From contig JAFUAD010000074.1 in NCBI GenBank assembly GCA_017460835.1, positions 1-34,697 of the forward strand: DNA of 34,697 nt, in the 5' to 3' direction. This document shows, piece after piece, positions 4,172 to 17,082 of this stretch. Under the pieces are notes generated by a model, which had not been told where the DNA came from, did no database searches, and was given only the letters and a program-made list of their open reading frames with translations. The first letter of the stretch is position 1. The number at the start of each line of letters is the position of its first letter. The stretch is from Oscillospiraceae bacterium. Lineage in GTDB: Bacteria > Bacillota > Clostridia > Oscillospirales > Ruminococcaceae. Both the position numbers and the translations under genes were made by a program.

Positions 4172-4460
4172 AAGTATCCGCTGCGCGGATGCTATTTTGA
4201 ATGGGGATCTCTTTCGCCCATGTTTCGCAAAGTGAAACTGCGCTGTTTGCCTACGGCAAACATGGGATCCCCAAGCCCGCCGAGCTCTTTGCACGCTAGG
4301 GGTGTTTCGCCCGTTGCGACGGGCGGCCAGAGGCTCTGCCCAATGGTTTTGCTTCGCAAAACCGTGGGACTCACGCGAGCTTTTTGAAAAAAGCCCGACC
4401 AAAAACTTTAGAGACAGCTCCGATTATGGCTGCAAAAGCGCCCCCGAAAATGCCGCTCTC
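4172..4460 (+). repeat. Dispersed multi-hairpin repeat, copy 2 (complete)
   Basis: This is the only copy not cut by a window edge. In order it holds: the hairpin ATCCGC/GCGGAT; an outer stem GGGGAT/ATCCCC enclosing CCCAT/ATGGG, which itself encloses two hairpins (GTTTCGC..GTGAAAC and GTTTGCC..GGCAAAC), making a three-way junction; the hairpin CGCCCGT/ACGGGCG; an extra nested hairpin CCCA..GGTTTTGC/GCAAAACC..TGGG not found in the other copies; and the near-palindrome around GAGCTTTTT. The tail stops at the stop codon of the dockerin deacetylase. No convincing protein is encoded on either strand. Confidence 0.95.
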
Positions 4461-5731
4461 TATCTTTCCTGCATCAGCAGGCGCTTCAGCAGCGTCAGAT
4501 CGACTGCATTGAGCCTGCTGTTTCCGTCGAGGTCGGCCGCCGCGGCATCGGGAAGCGTCTGGCGCTCCGCCGCTAAATACTGCGCGAGCATCACGGCATC
4601 CGCGACCGTGCGCGCGCCGTCAGCATTGACATCCCCGGACAGTGCTTCTGCGCCGCCGCCCTTTACCAGAATCGAAACGCTTGTCATCTCCATGCTGCCG
4701 CTGTACGGCGCAATGCCGAGGCGGTCGAGCTCGGTCATGCCGACGCCGAGCGTATCGAGCGCTTCGAGAATGTCCTCTGCGAGGAAGCAGGCGGTGTCGC
4801 CGTTGAAATAGGCCGGCTGCACCGAATGCCAGATCGCCGTACCCGACCAGCGCTGCAAATTGAGCACAGGCTGGTTCGCGCCGGAATATTTCACCTCGAT
4901 CGCGAAGCTGCTGCCGAGCGCCTCCAGCTCCGCAGCATCCAGCACGCCCGCATCCTGCCAGACCGCCGCGCTCTGGTCTCCGGAGGCATTGCCGCTGAAC
5001 ACCGTCTTATGGAGCGTATACCCGCTGCACGGATATTTCGCGACGCGGGAATAGAGGATGTGCTCGCGCGGGGTCTCATTCTGCCGCGCAAAGAGCTCTG
5101 TCAGCGTCACGAACTCATAGCCCTGCTCGACAAGCTGCGGCATCACGATCTTCAGCGCCTCGACGGTCTGCGAATTGCCCGCGGCGTCGTGCAGCAGCAC
5201 GATCACGCCGTCCTTTGCGCCGTTCATGATATAATCCGCGCGCTGCTGCGCCGTGACATTTTCCATGTAATCCTGGCAGTCGATGCCGCAGATGAACGGC
5301 AGCCCGACCGCATCATAGAGCGCATCGCTCACATCAATGAACGGCGGGCGGAAGAACCGCGTCTTTTCGCCGGTGATCTGCTCGACCCATTCATCCACAT
5401 AGGCGATCTCCGCTTTCACCTTGTCGGCGTCCATCGCGGCCATATTGGAGTGCGTCTTGGAGTGGTTGTCGATCTCGCAGCCCATGTCATAGGCGCGCTT
5501 CACCGACACCGCGCTTTCGTCGTTGATATTGTCGCCGATCAGGAAAAAGGACGCCTTCGCGTTGTACTGCTCCAGGACATCGAGCACCTCATTGGTCGTC
5601 GTGGTATTCGGGCCGTCGTCAAAGGTCAGCGCGATCAGCTTCGGCTCGGCCTCCGCACTGCACGGCAATGCGGGCATTTGCAGCATCATCAGGAGCCCGC
5701 CGAAAAGCGCTGCTGTTTTTCTATGGTTCAT
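4460..5731 (-). CDS. Secreted NodB-family polysaccharide deacetylase with C-terminal dockerin
   Basis: This 423-residue exported protein should remove acetyl (or similar) groups from a polysaccharide outside the cell. A signal peptide covers about residues 1-26 (basic MNHRK, hydrophobic core, cleavage near CSAEA). The NodB domain (about 30-220) shows TFDDGP (36-41), the zinc-binding HSKTH (90-94), RPPF (128-131) and LLHD (179-182). Residues 235-360 look like a beta-rich, CBM-like module I cannot name. From about 365 there are two dockerin type I repeats, GDVNADG and ADLDGNSRLNAVDL, each with calcium-loop Asp/Asn. The ATG at 5731 is chosen because AAAGGAG sits 7 nt before it; the in-frame ATG at 5749 lies at the edge of that site. 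The dockerin implies attachment to a cohesin on a cellulosome-like scaffold. Substrate (xylan, chitin or peptidoglycan) is unknown. Confidence 0.92.
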   Translation of the reverse strand: MNHRKTAALFGGLLMMLQMPALPCSAEAEPKLIALTFDDGPNTTTTNEVLDVLEQYNAKASFFLIGDNINDESAVSVKRAYDMGCEIDNHSKTHSNMAAMDADKVKAEIAYVDEWVEQITGEKTRFFRPPFIDVSDALYDAVGLPFICGIDCQDYMENVTAQQRADYIMNGAKDGVIVLLHDAAGNSQTVEALKIVMPQLVEQGYEFVTLTELFARQNETPREHILYSRVAKYPCSGYTLHKTVFSGNASGDQSAAVWQDAGVLDAAELEALGSSFAIEVKYSGANQPVLNLQRWSGTAIWHSVQPAYFNGDTACFLAEDILEALDTLGVGMTELDRLGIAPYSGSMEMTSVSILVKGGGAEALSGDVNADGARTVADAVMLAQYLAAERQTLPDAAAADLDGNSRLNAVDLTLLKRLLMQER

Positions 5732-5781
5732 TCCGATTCTCCTTTGCATAATTTTATCTGATACAATCCTGCATCATATTC

Positions 5782-6926: not shown

Positions 6927-7868
6927 ATGGAGATCAAAGCAGTAAAATTCAGAAAAGACGGGTTTTATACACAGCCGTTTGTGTTCGGCGGCGAGGAGGG
7001 GATGGAACCGTTCGACAAAAACATCCGCTACCGGGGCAGCCTGCAAAACTATCTGATCGACACGGGGCGCGAGGTCATTCTGGTTGACACCGGGCTTCCG
7101 GCAGGCACGCCGGAGGAGGTGCCGGATGAGAACAGTATCCTCTACACCGGCAAGGATATTTGCAGCTATATGGAAGCGCTTGCGGCGCTCGGCTATCAGC
7201 CCGGGCAGGTCACAAAAATCCTGCTCACCCATAAGCACAACGACCATTCCGGCGAATTAAAATCGTTCCCGAATGCGAAAATCTATGTGAACCGCGATGA
7301 GATCGGCGCAGCGGAATTGCAGGGGCTTGAAAACCTTGTTCCCGTGGATTTCACCGACGGGGCCTATCACAATTTCCCGGAAAGCCAGAAAATTGCCGAG
7401 GGCATTTACCTCATCCGGGCAAAGGGTCACACCAACGGCAACAGCATCATCATCGCCGAACATGACGGTCTGTTCTATATGCTCCACGGCGATATCACCT
7501 ATGTGGATGAAGCGCTGTATGAGAATAAGCTGTCCGTGGTGTTTGAGGACAAGGACGCAGCCAGAGAAACGCTTGACCGCGTGAGAGAGTTTGTGCGCAG
7601 CAATCCGACTGTTTACTGCGGCACGCATACGCCGCAGGGCTATGAGAATCTCGAAGCAAAGCGCGTGATCGACCTTGACAATCCCGTGCCGACTGTTTTG
7701 GCAGAGGCGGATTTCTCCGAAAAGAAAGCATCCGGCAAGTACGTCTGCTCGATCTGCGGCTATGTCTATGACCCCGCGGAGCATGACGGCGTCGCCTTTG
7801 AGGATCTGCCCGATGACTGGAAATGTCCGCGGTGCAAGCAGGGCAAGGACAAGTTCAATCCGGCATAA
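6927..7868 (+). CDS. Metallo-beta-lactamase-fold hydrolase fused to rubredoxin
   Basis: A 313-residue cytosolic protein. Residues 1-250 form a metallo-beta-lactamase domain of the lactonase-like branch: HKHNDH gives ligands His102, His104, Asp106 and His107, with His168 (GHTNGNS), Asp189 (HGD) and His234 (GTH) completing a two-metal site. Residues 271-313 are a rubredoxin: [10 protein letters not shown] (Cys274, Cys277) and WKCPRC (Cys300, Cys303). Rubredoxin brings an electron-transfer iron, so the fused enzyme may be redox-active or oxygen-responsive rather than a plain hydrolase; unlike the oxygen-reducing flavodiiron proteins there is no flavodoxin domain. The ATG has GAGGAGG 5 nt upstream. 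It follows a TetR gene and a long leader, and ends at a bidirectional terminator. Substrate unknown. Confidence 0.93.
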
Positions 7869-7940: not shown

Positions 7941-8900
7941 TTACAGAAGATCACCGCGGAATTTCGCGGGGTTCGCGGTTCCGATGCGGGCGCCGTAGCG
8001 CACGACAGTCTCGGCACCGTTCTCAGAATTTTTCAGGATTTGCTCATATAACTGCGCCGCGTCCCGTTCGAGCACCAGCACGATCGTCGAGCCGCCGAAT
8101 TCAAAATAACCTTTTTCGATGCCGCGCGCGACCTGCTCGCCGTGCGGGTGATTGACGATCTTCCCGACGAACATCGCACCGACCTCGATTTGCAGCACGC
8201 GTCCGAAATGCACGGTGTCGAGCATCGTGACGGTGCGGGTGTTGCGGTGATAGACCTTGACATATTTCGCGGAGACCGGATTGACCGTATGCAGCACGCC
8301 CTCGATCCGGCGGGTCTTGCCGATGCGGCAGTCATCCGGGTAGCAGTAGCGGTGATAGTCGTCCGGCGTCAGGCGGAAGATCAGGCACTGCCCGCCCTCA
8401 TAGCGTTTCGCGAGCCGCTTGCAGCCGAGGAACGCCGCAAGGCTGTAATCCGCACCCTTGACCGTAAAATGCGTCTCTGCGTCAATCGGCACGACGGTCA
8501 GCTTTGCGTCGCAGGGGGAGATCAGCGCCTCCGGCAGCCGGTCGATCGGCCTTGCCTCGGGCTTGATCGGTCTTGTGAAAAAAGCGTTGAAGCTGCGGAA
8601 TTTTTCCTCCGCAAAATCCTTCATTTGAATATGCTTTGTGAGGACAAAGGGCGGGATCGCGACCGTTGAGACCGGATGCTCCAGCGCCATCCCGGCGGCC
8701 TTCGAGACCACGGGCTTTGTCAGGATTTTCAGTGCAGCGCGGCCGGGTGCCGTCCCGTAGAGCAGCCCCAGCAGCTTACCCTGCTTTTCGCAGGAATCCC
8801 TGACCGGATTCCCCGCCATATCGCAGATCGAAGCGCCTGCCCCCGGAGCCTCCTCGGAGGATGCCTCCTGCTCCTTAACCGATTCCAGTTCCTCCGCCAT
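7941..8900 (-). CDS. psd: Phosphatidylserine decarboxylase proenzyme
   Basis: The 319-residue proenzyme converts phosphatidylserine to phosphatidylethanolamine at the membrane. The self-cleavage site is FGGST (about 268-272), whose Ser becomes the pyruvoyl group of the small alpha chain. Other family marks are FFTRPIKPEARPI, SPCDAK, the DDYHRYCYP segment, and NPVSAKYVKVYHRN. The ATG at 8900 has GAGGAGGT 7-8 nt upstream; an in-frame GTG at 8909 overlaps that ribosome site and is rejected. The first 35 residues are acidic and poorly ordered. It lies 29 nt downstream of pssA, with which it forms the complete two-step pathway from CDP-diacylglycerol. Confidence 0.95.
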   Translation of the reverse strand: MAEELESVKEQEASSEEAPGAGASICDMAGNPVRDSCEKQGKLLGLLYGTAPGRAALKILTKPVVSKAAGMALEHPVSTVAIPPFVLTKHIQMKDFAEEKFRSFNAFFTRPIKPEARPIDRLPEALISPCDAKLTVVPIDAETHFTVKGADYSLAAFLGCKRLAKRYEGGQCLIFRLTPDDYHRYCYPDDCRIGKTRRIEGVLHTVNPVSAKYVKVYHRNTRTVTMLDTVHFGRVLQIEVGAMFVGKIVNHPHGEQVARGIEKGYFEFGGSTIVLVLERDAAQLYEQILKNSENGAETVVRYGARIGTANPAKFRGDLL

Positions 8901-8929
8901 AGCAGGCACCTCCTCTCAGATTCCGGCGA

Positions 8930-9562
8930 TCAGCCGTGCTTGTGCTTGAAAATGAGCAGCGCAAGCTCCAGTGCGCCCGCGACGATGAACAGCAGCATCG
9001 TCCGCATGCCGGGCTTTTTGAGCGTGAACCGCGTGATAAATGCGCAGGCGATAATGGCGTAAATGACCGTACAGACGATCGGGAAGCTGCTCCCGAGATC
9101 CTTCCGGAATGCAAACAGCAGCGGAATGATCAGCGCGACGGATGTAACCGGCAGCCCCTCATAGACCTTTCTGCGCTCGGTCGTGACCTGCTGGCGCTCC
9201 TCCTCCGAGACATTGAAATAGGCAAGGCGGATGAGTGCCGCAAGGCTGAAGCAGCTGTAGACCGCAATGTTGATCGGCTTGCGGAGCGGTGCGCCGCAGC
9301 TGAAGGCGATCATCGGCGGCAGCAGCCCGAAGCAGACCATGTCTGAAAGCGAGTCGATCTGGATGCCGAAGCGCGATTCCTGCGGGGTGCGGTTCTTTTT
9401 GGTCTTTGCGACCTTTCCGTCAAACATGTCGCAGAAGCCCGCCAGCAGCAGCATGATAATCGCACCGTTGGTGCTGCCCTGCGAGGCGAAATATAATCCG
9501 AGCGAACCGCAGACAAATCCGACGTATGTCAGAATGACGGTGTAGCTGTAATATCCGATCAT
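8930..9562 (-). CDS. pssA: CDP-diacylglycerol-serine O-phosphatidyltransferase
   Basis: A 210-residue integral membrane enzyme that makes phosphatidylserine from CDP-diacylglycerol and serine. The CDP-alcohol phosphotransferase signature is DGKVAK followed by GIQIDSLSD. Compared with the textbook motif DG-x2-AR-x8-G-x3-D-x3-D it has Lys for Arg and a spacer of 12 residues instead of 8; I believe this is typical of a clostridial branch. About five or six hydrophobic segments are visible. The ATG at 9562 has AGGAGAAGGG upstream; the frame is open for another 72 codons but without homology. It is the first gene of the pssA-psd operon. Confidence 0.93.
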   Translation of the reverse strand: MIGYYSYTVILTYVGFVCGSLGLYFASQGSTNGAIIMLLLAGFCDMFDGKVAKTKKNRTPQESRFGIQIDSLSDMVCFGLLPPMIAFSCGAPLRKPINIAVYSCFSLAALIRLAYFNVSEEERQQVTTERRKVYEGLPVTSVALIIPLLFAFRKDLGSSFPIVCTVIYAIIACAFITRFTLKKPGMRTMLLFIVAGALELALLIFKHKHG

Positions 9563-9614
9563 AAATATTCCCTTCTCCTGATTTTCTGCACGTCTGTGCA
9601 AGCTCTCACTGCTT

Positions 9615-9643
9615 ATTATAGCATTTTTCAGAAGAATTTGCAA
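9615..9643 (-). promoter_or_regulatory. Promoter for pssA-psd
   Basis: On the minus strand: TTGCAA (9643-9638), 17 nt and TATAAT (9620-9615), about 53 nt before the pssA ATG. Confidence 0.85.
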
Positions 9644-9682
9644 CCCCTTTTCCCGATTTTCTGCCCGCAGATGTATCATATG

Positions 9683-9717
9683 CCGCAGAAACCCCCGGCA
9701 GCTCCGGTTTCCTGCGG
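9683..9717. other. Imperfect inverted repeat between the pssA and pfl promoters
   Basis: CCGCAGAAACC (9683-9693) pairs with GGTTTCCTGCGG (9706-9717) with a single bulged C. There is no T-run, and it lies 55 nt upstream of the pfl -35 box, so it may be a regulator site or the end of an undetected short transcript. The rest of this divergent intergenic region (9563-9858) holds only the two promoters. Confidence 0.5.
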
Positions 9718-9771
9718 GGCAGCTTTCCTGAAAAAAAGAATAAACTTGTGTTCCAAACAGACGTTTCCGCC

Positions 9772-9799
9772 TTGACAAATGCCGGAAAAGTAGTATAAT
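9772..9799 (+). promoter_or_regulatory. Promoter for the split pyruvate formate-lyase operon
   Basis: TTGACA (9772-9777), 16 nt, TATAAT (9794-9799); an overlapping TAATAT would give 18 nt. The start would be near 9806, leaving a leader of about 55-65 nt with the weak ribosome site AGAAAGGATG. Confidence 0.85.
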
Positions 9800-9858: not shown

Positions 9859-11949
9859 ATGATGTCAGGTATGTTCAGGCAGTATGCACAGGAATGGGAC
9901 GGCTTTGTGCAGGGCAAATGGAGCGATCACTCGGTCGATGTCCGCGATTTCATCTCAAAAAATTACACACCCTATGACGGCGACGAGAGCTTTCTGGAGG
10001 GGCCGACCGAGGCAACGAAGCAGCTCTGGGCGCAGGTCACGGAACTTTCCGCGAAGGAGCGGGAGGCAGGCGGCGTGCTGGATATGGACACGAAGATTAT
10101 CTCGACCGTGACCTCGCACGGCCCGGGCTATCTGAACAAGGAGCTTGAGAAAATCGTCGGGCTCCAGACGGATAAGCCCTTCAAGCGTGCGTTGCAGCCC
10201 TTCGGCGGCATCCGCATGGCACAGCAGGCCTGCAAGGAGTACGGCTACGAGGTCGATCCGGAGGTCGTCGAGATCTTCACAAAATACAGAAAAACGCACA
10301 ATCAGGGCGTTTTCGATGCATATACGCCGGAGATGCGCCTCGCGCGGAAATCCGCGATCCTGACCGGCCTCCCCGATGCCTACGGCAGAGGCAGAATCAT
10401 CGGCGACTACCGCAGAGTCGCGCTCTACGGCATCGACCGGCTGATCGAGGACAAGGAGCACCAGAAGGCGAACGACTACGCCCGCATGACCTCGCGAAAC
10501 ATTCAGCTCCGCGAGGAGCTCTCGGAGCAGATCCGGGCGCTCGGCGAGCTCAGAGAGCTCGGCAGAATCTACGGATTCGATATCTCGCAGCCGGCAAAGA
10601 ACGCGCAGGAGGCCGTGCAGTGGCTGTATTTCGGCTATCTCGCGGCGGTCAAGGAGCAGAACGGCGCGGCGATGAGCCTCGGCAGAACCTCGACCTTCCT
10701 CGATATCTTCATCCAGCGCGACCTCGACCGTGGCATCATCACCGAGAAAGAGGCGCAGGAACTCATCGACCACTTCATCATGAAGCTGCGCATGGTGCGC
10801 TTTGCGCGGACGCCCGAATACAATGCGCTGTTCTCCGGCGACCCGACATGGGTGACGGAATCCATCGGCGGCGTGTCGGTTGACGGGCAGCATATGGTCA
10901 CGAAAAATTCCTTCCGCTATCTCAATACACTGAACAATCTCGGCACCGCGCCGGAGCCCAATATGACTGTGCTCTGGTCAAAGAAGCTGCCGCTCAATTT
11001 CAAGCGCTTCTGCGCGAAAATGTCGATCAAGTCCTCGTCGATTCAGTATGAAAACGACGACCTGATGCGCGTCAATCACGGCGACGACTACGCGATCGCC
11101 TGCTGCGTGTCCTCGATGCGCGTCGGCAAGGAGATGCAGTTCTTCGGCGCGCGCGCAAACCTCGCGAAATGCCTGCTCTACGCGATCAACGGCGGCGTCG
11201 ATGAGGTCATGAAGATTCAGGTCGGGCCGAAATACCGCCCCGTCGAGGGCGATTACCTCGACTACGACGATGTGATGGACAAGTACGATCAGATGATGGA
11301 ATGGCTCGCGGGGCTGTATGTCAATACGCTGAACATCATCCACTATATGCACGACAAATACTGCTACGAGCGGCTGCAAATGGCGCTGCACGACCGCGAG
11401 GTCAAGCGCTATTTCGCGACCGGCATCGCGGGGCTTTCCGTCGTGGCCGATTCGCTCAGCGCGATCAAATACGCGAAGGTGAAGTGCATCCGCGATGAAA
11501 ACGGCATCGTCGTGGACTACGAGACTGCGGGTGACTATCCGAAATACGGCAACGACGACGACCGCGTCGATCAGATCGCCGTCGATATCGTGCGGCGGTT
11601 CATGAACAAGATCCGCAAGCACCACACCTACCGCGAGAGCATCCCGACGATGAGCATTCTGACGATCACCTCCAATGTCGTCTACGGCAAAAAGACCGGC
11701 AATACGCCCGACGGCAGAAAGCACGGCGTTCCGCTCGCACCGGGCGCAAACCCGATGCACGGCAGAGATACCCACGGTGCCGTCGCCTCGCTGAGCTCGG
11801 TCTCGAAGCTGCCCTTCCGCCATGCGCAGGACGGCATCTCCAATACCTTCTCCATTATCCCGGATGCGCTCGGCAAGAGCCAGACCGTGTTCTCCGGCGA
11901 TCTTGACCTCGACGCACTGCGGCAGGAGGCGGCAGATGAAGCCGAATGA
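9859..11949 (+). CDS. pflB: Pyruvate formate-lyase body lacking the glycyl-radical domain (split PFL)
   Basis: The 696-residue product is the barrel of formate C-acetyltransferase, which cleaves pyruvate plus CoA to acetyl-CoA and formate. Similarity to ordinary PFL runs from [19 protein letters not shown] at the N-terminus to [16 protein letters not shown] near 675. The two catalytic cysteines are present at 415-416 ([13 protein letters not shown]), as is [10 protein letters not shown]. It then ends with an unrelated acidic tail of about 20 residues. A normal PFL would continue with the domain carrying RVSGYAV; here that domain is the separate gene at 12179-12418. This is not a frameshift: the downstream pieces have their own ribosome sites. 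The start is either 9859 or the ATG at 9871, which is better spaced from AAAGGA. The 75-residue gene overlaps its end by 14 nt. Confidence 0.93.
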
Positions 11950-12163
11950 GCTGCCCGCGGATGCGGCGGAGCTGCACGACCCGGACGCGCTCGCCGAGAT
12001 GATCGACCGGCTCTTTGAAAGCGGCACACAGCATATCAATCTCGAAATCGGCGAGCAGACCGGCATCCGGACGGTGAACAGCACGGATTGCGGCGGAAAA
12101 CCGGGCGCCTGTGCCGTCCCGAATTTTCCGTATAATGATGAAAACAGCGAAGAAGCTGAATAA
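11936..12163 (+). CDS. 75-residue mini-protein resembling half a glycyl-radical domain
   Basis: It starts at ATG 11936, inside the end of the PFL body, with GCAGGAGGCG as ribosome site, and stops 15 nt before the glycyl-radical gene. Residues 16-37 ([20 protein letters not shown] and following) line up with residues 8-29 of the glycyl-radical protein ([20 protein letters not shown]): about 7 of 22 identical and most others conservative. It then departs into a segment with two cysteines (Cys52, Cys59, DCGGKPGAC) and an acidic tail; the radical motif RVSGYAV is absent. Its place between the two halves of the enzyme suggests a role in assembly or protection of PFL, perhaps occupying the dock of the radical domain. 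This is inference; I know of no named family. Confidence 0.8.
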
Positions 12164-12178
12164 ACGGGAGGTTTTCTT

Positions 12179-12418
12179 ATGGCAAACGATCAACAGGTAG
12201 ACAATCTGGTCGCGCTGCTCGACGGCTATGTCGAAAAGGGCGGACACCACCTCAATGTCAATGTATTCACGCGGGAAACTCTGCTTGATGCACAGGCACA
12301 TCCGGAAAAATATCCGCAGCTTACCGTGCGGGTCTCCGGCTACGCGGTCAACTTCATCAAGCTCACGAAGGAGCAGCAGGATGATGTAATCTCGCGTACC
12401 TTTCACAGCAGCATCTGA
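12179..12418 (+). CDS. Stand-alone glycyl-radical subunit of pyruvate formate-lyase (GrcA/YfiD-like)
   Basis: The 79 residues correspond to the last 80 of an ordinary [41 protein letters not shown] and [10 protein letters not shown]. The radical glycine is Gly54 in RVSGYAV, 25 residues from the C-terminus as in E. coli PFL. GGGAGG lies 8 nt before the ATG. E. coli YfiD (GrcA) is an autonomous domain of this type that rescues PFL whose own C-terminus has been cut by oxygen. Here the main protein has no such domain at all, so this gene should be an obligatory subunit. It is the third gene of the operon and is followed by a terminator hairpin. Confidence 0.93.
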
Positions 12419-12429
12419 TGCATTTTATT

Positions 12430-12466
12430 CAGCCCGCTGACAGTGCGCAGCGGGCTGTGTTTTTTG
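12430..12466 (+). terminator. Intrinsic terminator between the glycyl-radical subunit and pflA
   Basis: CAGCCCGCTG (12430-12439) pairs perfectly with CAGCGGGCTG (12448-12457) around an 8-nt loop, followed by TGTTTTTT. It begins 12 nt after the stop codon. No separate promoter for pflA is evident, so read-through would give less activase than enzyme. Confidence 0.85.
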
Positions 12467-12483
12467 AAAGGGGGGCAGGAATC

Positions 12484-13242
12484 ATGGAGGGACGGATTCA
12501 TTCGACAGAATCCTTCGGCACCGTTGACGGGCCGGGGGTGCGGTTCGTGATCTTTTTTCAGGGCTGCCCGATGCGCTGCCGCTACTGCCACAACCCCGAC
12601 ACATGGCAGCCGGGCGCGGGGCATCCCGAAACGGCGGAGTCGCTGCTCGAAGCCTACCGGCGCAATGCCGCATTTTATCAGAACGGCGGTATCACCTGCA
12701 CCGGCGGGGAGCCGATGCTGCAAATGCCCTTTCTCACCGAGCTGTTCACGCGCGCGAAGGCCGAGGGCATCCACACCTGCCTTGACACCTCCGGCATCTG
12801 CTATGCGCCGGAAAACGCGGAGGCCGTGCGCAAGCTGCTCTCCGTGACCGATCTGGTCATGCTCGATCTCAAGCACATCCGCGAGGACGCACACCGCGCC
12901 CTGACCGGTCACACAAACCGGAATATCCTGCAATTTGCGGCGTTGATCTCCGAATGCGGCGTGCCCCTCTGGATCCGGCATGTGCTGGTTCCCGGGCTGA
13001 CCGACGCGGAGGAGGACCTCGAAGCGCTCGGCTTTTTCATCGGCGGGCTGAAAACGCTCAAAGCGCTCGATGTGCTGCCGTATCATGACATGGGCAAGCA
13101 GAAATATGCCGCGCTGGGGCTCCCCTATCCGCTGCCCGATACCGCCCCCGCAACTGCGGAGGAGGCGGCAGGCGCCAAGCAGACCGTGCTCCGCGGCATC
13201 AAAAAGCGGCTGCTCTGTGATAATAAAAGCAGCCGAAAATGA
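12484..13242 (+). CDS. pflA: Pyruvate formate-lyase activating enzyme (radical SAM)
   Basis: The 252-residue activase abstracts hydrogen from the PFL glycine using SAM and a 4Fe-4S cluster. The cluster motif is Cys28-x3-Cys32-x2-Cys35 (GCPMRCRYCHNPDTW). The TCTGGEPMLQ segment binds SAM, and HVLVPGLTD and LPYHDMGKQKY are typical of PflA. The start is ATG 12484 with a GGGGGG-rich ribosome site; the open frame upstream is non-coding terminator. Its normal target is an intramolecular domain; here it would act on the separate 79-residue subunit, alone or docked. Confidence 0.95.
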   Translation: MEGRIHSTESFGTVDGPGVRFVIFFQGCPMRCRYCHNPDTWQPGAGHPETAESLLEAYRRNAAFYQNGGITCTGGEPMLQMPFLTELFTRAKAEGIHTCLDTSGICYAPENAEAVRKLLSVTDLVMLDLKHIREDAHRALTGHTNRNILQFAALISECGVPLWIRHVLVPGLTDAEEDLEALGFFIGGLKTLKALDVLPYHDMGKQKYAALGLPYPLPDTAPATAEEAAGAKQTVLRGIKKRLLCDNKSSRK

Positions 13243-13298: not shown

Positions 13299-13349
13299 AA
13301 GAGAAAGGATTTTGTACCGCAGTCTGCTTTAAGGGAGGTGTACCGGATC

Positions 13350-15269
13350 ATGCTGCATCCGATTATCGGCGTCTGCCTGTCTACTGTGCAGGAGGAGGAC
13401 CGGCTGTATTTTATCAGCGGGCTGAACCGCCATGCGGTCGAAAACGGCTACCGGCTGATGATCTTCCAGACCTGCTCCGATCTCTACCGCTCGAAGAATC
13501 CCAATGACGACGGCGAGATCACCGTGTTTCAGCTCATTCCCTATGAAAAGCTCTCTGCGATGATCATTCTGCCGCAGTTTCTGTTCAATCACCCTGTGCT
13601 CGATACCATTGTCGCCGAGTGCCGGAAGCGGGATATCCCCGTGATCTCCATTGACCGGCAGATCTTCGGCTGCACCTGCTTTTCCTTTGCCTATGCGGAT
13701 ATTTTCGAGCAGCTCTGCCGGCATGTCATTGACGTACACCGCGCGAAAAATCTGCTGATGATGGCGGGCACAAAGGGCAACAGCTTCTCCGAGAGCCGGA
13801 TCTCGGCCTTCCGGAAGGCGCTGGAGGAGAGCGGGCTGCGCTTTGATGAATCTATGGTCGGCTACGGCGACTTCTGGGCGGAGCCGACCGAGGCGACGAT
13901 GGAGCGCTGGTTTGAGATCGAAAAGCGGCCGTATCCCGATGCGATCATCTGCGCGAACGATTCTATGGCGATCGTCGTCAGCAGCTGGCTCCAGCTCCGC
14001 GGCGTCCGGATTCCGGAGGATGTCATCATCACCGGCTTCGACGGCATCCAGCAGTCGGAATACCACCTGCCGCACCTGACCACCTGTCATCAGGACTATG
14101 ACCGCATGGGCAGAGAGCTCGTCGCGGCCGTCAACAGGCTGCGGAGGGGCGAGCGCCAGCCCGTTTACAATGTCATCGGCTTCCATATCCGCCTGTCGCA
14201 GTCCTGCGGCTGCAAGCCGGTCGAGTTCCGCAATATCAATGATGCGATGAACCGGCTGTTCCAGCGCGTCCGGACGGTCAATAACCGGCAGGATCTGATG
14301 TGTACGCTTCAGGCCTCGATCTCGAAAATGGAGACGATCGAGGAGCTGCCCTCTGTCCTCATTGAGAAATTCGTGTTCCATACCAGTATCTTCGCGATCA
14401 ATGACGATATCTTCAAGCTGCCGGATTTCGGCCGCCATCACAAAAAGGACAAGGCATTCACCGAGAATGCGGATATCATGTATCACCGCTATTTCTGGTA
14501 TCAGAGGGAGCGCTGCACGGTCCCGCGCAGGGAGCTGATCCCGGATCTCGACCGGATGCTCGAACGCGAGGAGCCCATCATCGTCTGTGTGCTGCATCAC
14601 CTCGACCTCACGCTCGGATACTGTGTCTTTCAGACGGAGCTTGCCGTTGAGGAATACGAGAAGATTTACACCTTCATGAGCGCGGTCAATGCGTCTTTCG
14701 GCGCATTCCACAGCAAATTGCAGATTCAGGCGATCAATGACCAGCTCAAATCGGTCAATACCGAGCTGGAAAAGCTCTATGTTCACGACTACCTGACCGG
14801 TCTCTATAACCGCCGCGGATTTTACCGCGAGTTCCGGCTGATGCGCGAGGCGCAGAAAACGCCGGCGTTCGCGTTCCTGATCTCCGCAGACCTCGACCGG
14901 CTGAAATATATCAACGACACCTTCGGCCATCTTGAGGGCGATAATGCGATCTGTACCGTCGCGCAGGCTTTGCTGCATGCCGCCGGAAAGGACGATATCG
15001 TTGCGCGCTTCGGCGGAGATGAATTTGCCGTCGGCGGGATTCTGCCCGCTGCGGACGCAGAAGCGCATTATGCCGCATTCCGCGAGCATTTTCAGAATTA
15101 TCTCAAAAAATACAATGAGATTTCGCAGAATCCCTATCCGGTCGAGGCGAGCATCGGCTTCTATGCCGAGGCGCTCAACAGCGACTTTGACCTCGACAGT
15201 ATGATCAAGGTCGCCGATGACCGGATGTATGCCGAAAAGCTCGCCCACAAAAAAGCCCGGCTGGTCTGA
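13350..15269 (+). CDS. Cytosolic diguanylate cyclase with LacI-type ligand-binding domain
   Basis: A 639-residue protein. Residues 1-275 resemble the sugar-binding half of LacI/GalR regulators (HPIIGVCLSTVQ, PVISIDRQIFG, DAIICANDSMAIVVSSWL, EDVIITGFDGIQQSEY), but the DNA-binding helix-turn-helix is missing and there is no signal peptide or membrane span. A middle region (280-450) and a short coiled coil (INDQLKSVNTELEKLYVHD) lead to a GGDEF domain with DLDRLKYINDTFGHLEGDN and an intact GGDEF (555-559), so it should make c-di-GMP. The usual inhibitory RxxD site is not conserved (GKDD at the place). GGGAGGTG precedes the ATG at 13350; the GTG at 13338 lies within it. Likely role: coupling a small-molecule signal to c-di-GMP. 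Confidence 0.88.
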   Translation: MLHPIIGVCLSTVQEEDRLYFISGLNRHAVENGYRLMIFQTCSDLYRSKNPNDDGEITVFQLIPYEKLSAMIILPQFLFNHPVLDTIVAECRKRDIPVISIDRQIFGCTCFSFAYADIFEQLCRHVIDVHRAKNLLMMAGTKGNSFSESRISAFRKALEESGLRFDESMVGYGDFWAEPTEATMERWFEIEKRPYPDAIICANDSMAIVVSSWLQLRGVRIPEDVIITGFDGIQQSEYHLPHLTTCHQDYDRMGRELVAAVNRLRRGERQPVYNVIGFHIRLSQSCGCKPVEFRNINDAMNRLFQRVRTVNNRQDLMCTLQASISKMETIEELPSVLIEKFVFHTSIFAINDDIFKLPDFGRHHKKDKAFTENADIMYHRYFWYQRERCTVPRRELIPDLDRMLEREEPIIVCVLHHLDLTLGYCVFQTELAVEEYEKIYTFMSAVNASFGAFHSKLQIQAINDQLKSVNTELEKLYVHDYLTGLYNRRGFYREFRLMREAQKTPAFAFLISADLDRLKYINDTFGHLEGDNAICTVAQALLHAAGKDDIVARFGGDEFAVGGILPAADAEAHYAAFREHFQNYLKKYNEISQNPYPVEASIGFYAEALNSDFDLDSMIKVADDRMYAEKLAHKKARLV

Positions 15270-15372: not shown

Positions 15373-17082
15373 TTATCCGGCGACGGTGCTGTGCGTACCC
15401 TCGCTGCTCTTGAGCGTTTCGACAGACGATGCATACCATTTTCCGTCATCCGCCTTCACGAGCGTCCATCTCAGCGTACCGGCATAGTCATTGACCACGC
15501 GCTTCGTAAGCTGATACTCATAGCTCACCTCGCAGGTGCAGCAGTTTTCGGAATAGACTGCCAGATTGGACACAACGGTCGGGCCGTCCTTGCGGGCGGT
15601 GTAGGGGTTGTTCCAGCCCCATTCGTACATGTTTTCCGTCATGGCATTGTAGACGGTCGATTTCCGGACAAGATACTGCGCAAGTGCGTTGAAATTCCGC
15701 TGCTGCGCCTCATCCTTATTGATGACATAGTTGATATACGCCGCGGTCAGGTCGGTGATGCGCTGCGTCATCTCGTCGCTGATCTCCGCCTCATACGCCG
15801 GGGAATAGACGAGGGAGATGTGCTTTTCGCCCTCCTTCGGCTCCGCCTTCAGCGTGAGCGGTCTGCCGGAGGCGTCCTTCGCCTCCACGACCGGCGCGGC
15901 ATACAGCCCGGTGATCTTGCAGAGCTGTGCATCCGGCTGCGCTGCATATTTCAGCGCGGCTTCATCGAGCTTCAGCGGGGAATCCGCCGGGGCAACAGCC
16001 GTCGGTGCGACCTCGATGCCGTTGACGGTCAGCGTCGAGCCCGCCGGCATGATGACATTCAGGTCATACTCCGGCTCGGAGGCAACCTCCATCAGCGAGG
16101 TCACGGTGCCGACCTTCCAGAGAGTGAAGTCGTGCTTATCCGTGGTGCCGCCGCTGACGAGCTCGACCTGCGCGATCGCAGCCTCGCCGCAGTTGAGATA
16201 ATAGACCGGCTTGTCATCTTTATAGAGTCTGCCGTTTTTCTTCCATGAGAATTTGTAATCCGCCGGATCCTCAATCTCCAGTGTATTGTAGATGGATTCC
16301 GGTGTTTCATACTGCGAAAGCGGCAGGACATTGATCTTTTCCTTCATCAGATTCTGATAGAATGCCTCTCTTGCGGCGGCATCCTGACTGTTCAGCTCGG
16401 TGATATAGGAATCAATGGCATATTTCGGCTGCGAATCCTCATATTCCCGGCAGAGCACCCACATCCAGCGGGAAAGGAGCAGAATGCCGATAAATGCAAG
16501 GACAACATAGATTGTCATGCCGATGCGCCATGCGGAAAAGCCGCTCTTTTTGCCTGCGGTCCCCTCGGCAGCGGCATTTGCTGCCGGACGCTTCTGTGCG
16601 CTGCCGCTCCGCTTTACCGGACGGCGGCCGTCTGCCGGGCGGCGACCCTCTGCGGCTTTTTCATTCGCAAAACGGGTTCCGGCTGCTGCGGATTCACCCC
16701 ATACAAAAGCATCATTTCCGGGCTTTTCATCCGCAAAACGGGTACCTGCCGCTGCGGCGCGGGTTCTCTGCTGCTGACCGCTCGGTGCGGCAGCTCTTTT
16801 CTGCTGCTGATTGCTCGGTGCGGCAGTTCTTTTCTGCTGCTGACCGCTCGGTGCGGCAGCTCTTTTCTGCTGTTGATTGCTCGGTGCGGCAGTTCTTTTC
16901 TGCTGCTGACCGTCCGGTGCAGCGGGTCTTTTTCTCTGCTGACCGCTCGGTGCAGCGGATCTTTGCCGCTGCTGGCCGTCCGCCGATGCGGGACGTCTGC
17001 GCTGCTGCGGCGCGCTGCCGGAGGGTCTTGTCTGTTTGCGGTTCTCGTCCGGAAGCCGGACCTCCTGCTGTTCGTAATCCAT
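15373..17082 (-). CDS. Membrane-anchored protein with a cationic repeat tail, unknown function
   Basis: A 569-residue protein with no family I recognise. Residues 1-190 are disordered, rich in Gln, Lys, Arg, Ala and Pro, and include about six 11-residue repeats of the form QQQKRTAAPSN. One membrane segment follows (about 190-212, MTIYVVLAFIGILLLSRWMW), placing the cationic tail inside and a 350-residue mixed alpha/beta domain outside. The outer part has three cysteines near VYSENCCTCEVSYEY. Ala/Gln/Arg tails of this sort could bind nucleic acid or acidic proteins at the inner face (inference). It starts 21 nt after the stop of the phosphodiester glycosidase gene, with which it is probably co-transcribed, and ends at a strong terminator. 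Confidence 0.85.
   Translation of the reverse strand: MDYEQQEVRLPDENRKQTRPSGSAPQQRRRPASADGQQRQRSAAPSGQQRKRPAAPDGQQQKRTAAPSNQQQKRAAAPSGQQQKRTAAPSNQQQKRAAAPSGQQQRTRAAAAGTRFADEKPGNDAFVWGESAAAGTRFANEKAAEGRRPADGRRPVKRSGSAQKRPAANAAAEGTAGKKSGFSAWRIGMTIYVVLAFIGILLLSRWMWVLCREYEDSQPKYAIDSYITELNSQDAAAREAFYQNLMKEKINVLPLSQYETPESIYNTLEIEDPADYKFSWKKNGRLYKDDKPVYYLNCGEAAIAQVELVSGGTTDKHDFTLWKVGTVTSLMEVASEPEYDLNVIMPAGSTLTVNGIEVAPTAVAPADSPLKLDEAALKYAAQPDAQLCKITGLYAAPVVEAKDASGRPLTLKAEPKEGEKHISLVYSPAYEAEISDEMTQRITDLTAAYINYVINKDEAQQRNFNALAQYLVRKSTVYNAMTENMYEWGWNNPYTARKDGPTVVSNLAVYSENCCTCEVSYEYQLTKRVVNDYAGTLRWTLVKADDGKWYASSVETLKSSEGTHSTVAG
16768..16965 (-). repeat. Six 33-bp in-frame tandem repeats
   Basis: Units start at 16768, 16801, 16834, 16867, 16900 and 16933 with an exact 33-nt period, each coding for 11 residues around QQQKR-AAP. 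Adjacent units alternate between two sequence variants (CTGACCGCTCGG and CTGATTGCTCGG), showing that pairs of units were duplicated. Copy number may vary between strains. Confidence 0.88.

What the first reader, a model, noticed from the sequence alone, without database searches (positions are those of the whole stretch)
9859..13242. Pyruvate formate-lyase split into a body and a separate glycyl-radical subunit
Seen: the body ends right after the SIIPDALGK segment and has no RVSGYAV; the 79-residue gene at 12179 starts with the LVALLDGY segment and carries it, with its own ribosome site. Known: PFL is normally one chain, and YfiD/GrcA is a spare part for damaged PFL. Inference: here the radical domain is an exchangeable subunit, so an oxygen-cleaved radical peptide could be replaced without remaking the 690-residue body.
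Basis: partly seen in the sequence, partly recalled or inferred. Interest (0 to 1): 0.85.

Follow-up and report, generated by a model that had tools for sequence, protein, structure and literature searches.

The report
Pyruvate formate-lyase split into three genes
A group of gut and rumen bacteria makes the key fermentation enzyme pyruvate formate-lyase in separate pieces, with the oxygen-sensitive radical part as its own small protein and often a further small cysteine protein between them, which could show how strict anaerobes keep this fragile enzyme running.

Summary
The body (9859-11949, 696 aa) is a PFL with its catalytic cysteines but no glycyl radical domain (GRD); a 79-aa GRD gene (12179-12418) and the activase follow. 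This is no assembly error: 25 of 30 genomes of the genus examined have the split, as do named isolates, and a quick tree gives one split clade (support 99) with one re-fused member. In 77 named split loci the cysteine pair sits in MID (44 of 44, none then in the body tail) or, without MID, in the body's own tail (32 of 33). All 74 split bodies aligned carry an extra Cys438. It is the only PFL found in this genome (88% complete). NCBIfam already names the GRD 'GrcA3', and two 2026 PDB chains look like such bodies, so the split itself is partly known; I found no description of MID or the cysteine rule. Best reading: body plus GRD is the working PFL, and MID or the tail is a dithiol placeholder for the vacant GRD site (inferred). 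Exchange of the GRD is untested.

The parts
9772..9799 (+). promoter-like site TTGACA-16-TATAAT, upstream of the cluster
   Evidence: 12 of 12 consensus match (5 sites found, 1.9 expected in shuffles); consensus only, not tested
9859..11949 (+). PFL body, 696 aa (true start may be the Met at 9871), no glycyl radical domain, ends in an acidic Cys-free tail
   Evidence: PF02901 742.6 bits; TIGR01255 1137.5 bits, cut-off 994.2; 67% identical to E. coli PflB
11101..11106 (+). catalytic cysteine pair C415-C416 (E. coli C418-C419)
   Evidence: 74 of 74 split and 20 of 20 one-chain PFLs (the one-chain rows were picked by this motif); sequence
11170..11172 (+). Cys438, characteristic of the split clade (E. 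coli T441)
   Evidence: 74 of 74 split bodies; 1 of 20 one-chain PFLs, and that one (L138) lies inside the split clade
11936..12163 (+). MID gene, 75 aa: GRD-like helix and strand, then C52 (12089-12091) and C59 (12110-12112), then an acidic tail
   Evidence: ORF, ribosome site, conservation, dN/dS below 1, hhalign to GRD E 6.1e-6
12179..12418 (+). separate glycyl radical domain, 79 aa (GrcA3), radical Gly54 codon 12338-12340
   Evidence: PF01228 83.6 bits; NF038360 168.7 bits, cut-off 158
12430..12457 (+). terminator-like hairpin with T run between GRD and activase
   Evidence: 10 pairs, 8 G-C (7 sites found, 4.2 expected in shuffles); consensus only
12484..13242 (+). PFL activating enzyme (radical SAM), 252 aa
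   Evidence: TIGR02493 285.4 bits, cut-off 231.75

Best explanation
This is a naturally split pyruvate formate-lyase. Shown by sequence: a body with the catalytic cysteines but no radical domain, a separate 79-aa GRD, MID between them and a PFL activase, side by side; the split belongs to a single clade of PFL bodies. Inferred from E. coli PFL and YfiD: the GRD supplies the tenth barrel strand, the radical glycine loop and the C-terminal helix in trans; it docks in the body, the activase makes the glycyl radical, and the radical passes to C415-C416. Inferred: when oxygen cuts the GRD at its glycine, only the 79-aa subunit is lost and a new one can take its place. Inferred, my preferred reading of MID (about 0.35): MID, or the equivalent C-terminal tail in MID-less relatives, holds the vacant GRD site. 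Its helix and strand mimic the GRD's, and its dithiol reaches the exposed active site to keep C415-C416 reduced, perhaps through Cys438, as the C-terminal cysteine arm of class I ribonucleotide reductase does. The confidence given is for body plus GRD as the working PFL.
For: Only PFL found in the genome; split genus members 95-99% complete also have one PF02901 protein. Catalytic Cys pair in 74 of 74 split bodies. Body and GRD apart in 25 of 30 genus genomes, 23 of these with MID, and in 77 of 80 named loci, of which 44 with MID. One split clade, SH-aLRT 99, with one re-fused member. MID N-half against GRD: hhalign E 6.1e-6 over 27 columns; the MID model's first 41 columns or fewer hit GRDs of one-chain glycyl radical enzymes down to E 3e-6, and of frames confirmed as PFL by their cysteine motif down to 1.8e-5. 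Cysteine rule: MID present, 0 of 44 with a tail pair; MID absent, 32 of 33; Fisher p 7e-21, not corrected for kinship; 27 of 27 and 29 of 29 in two other, partly overlapping sets. Clade-specific Cys438. Tail motif CxxGxC in 18 of 33 MID-less bodies; E. coli NrdA ends CESGACKI. MID dN/dS below 1 in all 104 usable of 990 pairs. E. coli body 1-695 with YfiD is as active as wild type once activated (PMC8683613).
Against: No biochemistry. In E. coli, removing residues 696-733 made YfiD bind poorly, so a natural split must solve recognition some other way. MIDs are variable (35% mean column identity) and Cys spacing varies from 0 to 8 residues. One MID-less body (L177) has no tail cysteines. The Cys rule and Cys438 could partly reflect shared ancestry, although the MID label needs at least 8 changes on the tree, 3 of them forced by starred branches. 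Structure predictions were poor (mean pLDDT 61 and 57) and support nothing. An activase-like motif was found within 3 kb downstream in only 45 of 74 named loci.
Confidence: 0.8

Rival explanations
1. Constant heteromer: body and GRD are made together and stay together; the split is a historical accident and no repair by exchange happens.
For: One GRD gene next to the body gene, starting 15 nt after MID's stop; no second GRD copy found in the 88% complete genome; one member re-fused the parts (L138).
Against: The split state persists over a clade whose record titles name several families, which suggests an advantage. The precedent YfiD is an exchange part (PMC8683613).
Confidence: 0.35
2. MID or the cysteine tail is a structural lid or assembly factor that binds a metal (zinc or iron) and orients the GRD or blocks the open barrel; it does no thiol chemistry.
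For: 31 of 77 modules have three or four Cys, e.g. CGCCEGTCQ tails (22 have three, 9 four, 45 two, 1 none). Class III RNR has a zinc site that keeps its glycyl radical oriented (PMC5704485, passage). Benzylsuccinate synthase has [4Fe-4S]-binding accessory subunits, one of which governs thiyl radical formation (PMC12590467, passages).
Against: 45 of 77 modules have exactly two Cys and spacing runs from 0 to 8, unlike a fixed metal site; 72 of 79 GRDs have no Cys that could complete one. Histidine or other ligands are not excluded.
Confidence: 0.3
3. The body is a decayed gene and a different PFL does the work.
For: None found; the genome is 88% complete, so a second PFL could be missing from it.
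Against: Body 67% identical to E. coli PflB with the catalytic Cys pair; one PF02901 protein in the genome and in each split genus member searched; conserved across the genus.
Confidence: 0.03
4. A programmed +1 frameshift fuses body and MID into one chain.
For: In the window and many Ruminococcus-like loci MID overlaps the body end in the +1 frame.
Against: Other loci have MID after a gap or with the frame closed soon after the body stop (for example L116, L134, L140); the window MID has its own AGGAGG site and 32 of 44 MIDs have a ribosome-site-like motif.
Confidence: 0.05

Closest known systems
Pyruvate formate-lyase PflB (TIGR01255; E. coli 1H16, 2PFL)
   Same: Body 67% identical, same catalytic Cys pair, same activase family.
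   Different: One chain with its radical domain in PflB; here radical domain and MID are separate genes, and the clade carries Cys438.
Spare part proteins YfiD/GrcA (TIGR04365; 6OWR) and NCBIfam GrcA3 (NF038360)
   Same: Free-standing radical domain; the window GRD passes the GrcA3 cut-off (168.7 against 158).
   Different: YfiD repairs an enzyme that has its own domain, and has a disordered N-terminus (PMC8683613); here no PFL with its own domain was found. The GRD fails the GrcA cut-off (96.4 against 170).
PDB entries 38LA and 38LB ('Formate acetyltransferase', 687 and 739 aa)
   Same: No radical domain hit in these chains. Both score higher against every one of 126 split bodies than against any of 19 one-chain PFLs outside the clade (best 78% and 75% identity). 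The aligned end of 38LB reads GECDMCEMK.
   Different: Titles, papers and coordinates not available here; whether natural split bodies or cut constructs is unknown; the last 39 residues of 38LB were not seen; no MID-like chain and no chain close to the window GRD from these entries turned up.
Benzylsuccinate synthase and 4-hydroxyphenylacetate decarboxylase small subunits
   Same: Small cysteine-bearing partner of a glycyl radical enzyme.
   Different: Those hold [4Fe-4S] clusters (PMC12590467, passages); 40 of 44 MIDs have two or three Cys, and MID has a GRD-like helix and strand.
C-terminal cysteine-pair arm of class I ribonucleotide reductase (NrdA)
   Same: C-terminus with CxxGxC (E. coli CESGAC); could reach the active site of a radical enzyme.
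   Different: Not shown to be homologous; PFL turnover does not consume thiols (general knowledge), so the job would be rescue, not turnover.

Membership tests
Pyruvate formate-lyase (PflB) | PFL-like domain and TIGR01255 above cut-off | tested here: met
   742.6 bits (cut-off 24.3); 1137.5 (cut-off 994.2)
Pyruvate formate-lyase (PflB) | adjacent catalytic cysteine pair | tested here: met
   C415-C416, aligned with E. coli C418-C419; 74 of 74 split bodies
Pyruvate formate-lyase (PflB) | glycyl radical domain in the same chain | tested here: not met
   RVSGYAV lies in a separate ORF
Pyruvate formate-lyase (PflB) | cleaves pyruvate to formate and acetyl-CoA with a glycyl radical | not testable with these tools
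   needs enzyme assay and EPR
GrcA3 (NF038360) | score above curated cut-off | tested here: met
   168.7 bits, cut-off 158
GrcA/YfiD (TIGR04365) | score above curated cut-off | tested here: not met
   96.4 bits, cut-off 170
GrcA/YfiD (TIGR04365) | repairs a PFL that has its own radical domain | tested here: not met
   no PFL with its own domain found in the genome; genome 88% complete
Gly_radical domain (PF01228), for MID | Pfam match above cut-off | tested here: not met
   none for the window MID at E up to 1; 2 of 35 MIDs match at E up to 0.1, best E 0.033
Gly_radical domain (PF01228), for MID | partial similarity to the domain's first half | tested here: met
   hhalign E 6.1e-6, probability 85, 27 columns; hits to one-chain GRDs
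RNR-type C-terminal redox arm | Cys pair near the C-terminus (of body or of MID) | tested here: met
   76 of 77 split loci; flexibility not tested
RNR-type C-terminal redox arm | reduces the active-site disulfide and is re-reduced by a redoxin | not testable with these tools
   needs biochemistry

The most novel reading that the evidence does not exclude
MID is a radical-less double of the glycyl radical domain that carries a dithiol where the glycine loop would be. It closes the vacant barrel of the split PFL, keeps or restores the active-site thiols in the reduced state after air, and hands the site to a fresh GRD. This would be a redox arm, as known from aerobic ribonucleotide reductase, in a pyruvate-cleaving glycyl radical enzyme, provided either in trans (MID) or in cis (tail).
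Probability: 0.3. Interest if true: 0.88.

Novelty: new variant of a known kind. Interest (0 to 1): 0.72.

Why it matters
Pyruvate formate-lyase feeds fermentation in many anaerobes and is destroyed by oxygen at its radical glycine. A clade in which the radical part is a permanent, separate subunit makes the 'spare part' idea a standing design, not an accessory. The conserved third protein and the cysteine pair that moves between gene and tail give a direct test of how such an enzyme is protected when its radical domain is absent. A 2025 paper says that most glycyl radical enzymes, PFL included, are homodimers of a single polypeptide and that further accessory subunits may remain unidentified or unannotated (PMC12590467, passages).

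Tried and rejected
Decayed gene or assembly error: rejected. Programmed frameshift: unlikely. A first alignment of body, MID and fused rows misplaced the short MID rows and was dropped. AlphaFold2 of a type-B body read through its stop into the GRD gave mean pLDDT 61, and of the window MID read through into the GRD 57: too poor to use; the second model has a helix at MID 16-29 and strands at 34-38 and 42-46. Ten paper searches (one search was on ribonucleotide reductase) listed no paper that I recognised as describing a naturally split PFL or MID. Several lists were capped (20 of 112, 20 of 143, 25 of 38), one search was swamped by 'split green fluorescent protein' (20 of 358 shown), only open-licence papers are held, and no bioRxiv. 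A first comparison of the two PDB chains held only 4 one-chain PFLs; it was repeated with 20.

Full report
The region. On the plus strand the window holds, in order, a promoter-like site with 12 of 12 consensus bases (9772-9799), a PFL body of 696 aa (9859-11949), a 75-aa ORF that I call MID (11936-12163), a 79-aa glycyl radical domain (GRD, 12179-12418), a terminator-like hairpin (12430-12457) and a PFL activase (12484-13242). Pfam's Gly_radical model is cut at position 50: its first part ends the body, the rest is the GRD. The body keeps the catalytic cysteine pair (C415-C416) and is 67% identical to E. coli PflB. NCBIfam names body, GRD and activase formate C-acetyltransferase, GrcA3 and PFL-activating protein, each above its cut-off. 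The window MID matches no Pfam or NCBIfam family, and the MID profile no PDB chain better than E 0.48.

Is it real? The window lies in a 2.98 Mb genome, 88% complete. Of 30 genomes of the genus (own included), 25 have body and GRD as separate frames, 3 (G006, G013, G015) have a one-chain PFL, and 2 (G012, G018) have no match. 23 of the 25 have MID; G011 and G014 do not (which also holds two loci of other families, G047 and G056, both without MID). In this genome the other Gly_radical protein is the anaerobic ribonucleotide reductase NrdD, and there is one PF02901 protein. So the split PFL is the only PFL found; split genus members 95-99% complete (G002, G003, G004, G016) also have one PF02901 protein each.

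How wide is it? Record titles name Ruminococcus, Oscillospiraceae, Lachnospiraceae, Erysipelotrichaceae and Gastranaerophilales, many of them MAGs; isolates include Claveliimonas bilis c-25 and Lachnoclostridium phytofermentans KNHs2131. A further 29 split loci, chosen from hits in the family and order, gave 16 with MID and 13 without. By the MID model MIDs are rare: in 394 order genomes the hits that cover most of the model are G000, G237, G124 and G227, and in 398 phylum genomes G000 and G814; the other hits lie within the first 42 columns, most of them in GRDs. The first of these models was trained on the genus only, so it undercounts.

History. A quick tree of 93 bodies (74 split, 19 one-chain) puts the split bodies in one clade of 75 (SH-aLRT 99, rooted on E. 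coli); several one-chain rows have long branches. The single one-chain member inside is L138, a 774-aa frame that joins body and GRD through a linker with three cysteines. So the split looks to have arisen once and been undone at least once. The MID label needs at least 8 changes on the tree, 3 of them forced by starred branches.

What MID is. Its first half aligns to the GRD's first helix and strand: hhalign E 6.1e-6, 27 columns. Independently the MID model hits GRDs of one-chain glycyl radical enzymes (best E 3e-6), among them frames confirmed as PFL by their cysteine motif (best 1.8e-5). Its second half has no glycine loop; 43 of 44 named MIDs carry [AP]C..P there (the pattern allowed one or two residues). 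It evolves as a protein: dN/dS is below 1 (median 0.51) in the 104 of 990 pairs that could be used, 0.32 for the window against L108; pairs outside dS 0.05-1.5 or with few sites were dropped.

The cysteine rule. In the 77 named split loci with a body, MID presence and a Cys pair in the body tail exclude each other: 0 of 44 with MID have a tail pair, and all 44 MIDs have at least two Cys; 32 of 33 without MID have a tail pair. The exception is L177. Fisher p is 7e-21, not corrected for kinship. The other two sets agree, 27 of 27 and 29 of 29, and overlap partly with the first. Some MIDs end in the motif of the tails: ACGSPTLFEGLD in L080 and ACSSPTLFEGLD in L082, against CGSGACSSPTLFEGLD in the tail of L105. 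So one module seems to be provided either as a separate protein or as a body extension. Besides, Cys438 is found in 74 of 74 split bodies, while 19 of 20 one-chain PFLs have another residue; the twentieth is L138. Seven positions show such a difference.

How it may work. In E. coli PFL the residues that here form the GRD include strand 10 of the barrel, the radical loop and the last helix, and YfiD's C-terminal half has the same fold (PMC8683613, abstract and introduction in part). A body without them is an open barrel. E. coli PFL cut at 695 is as active as wild type once activated, but YfiD binds it poorly and activation falls 32-fold; the stub 696-733 seems to be a recognition element (PMC8683613, first part of the Discussion). 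MID carries a copy of the preceding helix and of the strand that opens that stub, so it could act as stub or placeholder in trans. The dithiol suggests chemistry: in class I ribonucleotide reductase a C-terminal Cys pair on a flexible tail is believed to re-reduce the active site (PMC5704485, passages), and E. coli NrdA ends CESGACKI, close to the CxxGxC of 18 of 33 MID-less bodies. This is analogy only. A metal-binding lid or a plain assembly factor remains possible, and the structure predictions were too poor to decide.

What is known. Free radical-domain proteins (YfiD, T4 Y06I, NCBI's GrcA2 and GrcA3) are known. Two PDB chains, 38LA and 38LB, lack a radical domain hit and score higher against each of 126 split bodies than against any of 19 one-chain PFLs outside the clade; their papers and titles were out of reach. 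I found no text on MID, the cysteine rule or a natural split in the listings of ten searches of open papers, several of them capped. Verdict: a real, conserved variant of a known enzyme; the split is partly known, the third subunit appears new.

Noticed in passing
11170-11172: Extra cysteine (Cys438) fixed in the split bodies aligned and absent from the one-chain PFLs outside the clade; possible partner of the tail or MID cysteines.
   Followed up: partly
L138 (2437-4734): Re-fused one-chain PFL inside the split clade, with a linker carrying three cysteines between body and radical domain.
   Followed up: partly
L156, L168, L175, L176, L182, L184, L187: Records titled Gastranaerophilales or Melainabacteria hold a split PFL subgroup whose GRD itself ends in CGC or AC, with Cys-rich body tails where a body is seen.
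   Followed up: no
6927-7868: Metallo-beta-lactamase fold protein with a C-terminal rubredoxin domain, upstream of the PFL cluster; possibly an oxygen-related redox protein.
   Followed up: no
13338-15269: Sugar-binding-protein-like sensor domain joined to a GGDEF domain, right after the activase.
   Followed up: no
4460-5749 (-): Polysaccharide deacetylase with CBM65 and dockerin type I, so the host may have a cellulosome.
   Followed up: no
7941-9778 (-): Neighbouring phosphatidylserine decarboxylase and CDP-alcohol phosphatidyltransferase genes.
   Followed up: no
15373-17082 (-): 569-aa ORF with repeats of the type QQQKRTAAPS in its N-terminal part and no Pfam match at E up to 1.
   Followed up: no
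genome G051 (same order): Eleven Gly_radical matches in one genome, the most of the 61 genomes searched there.
   Followed up: no
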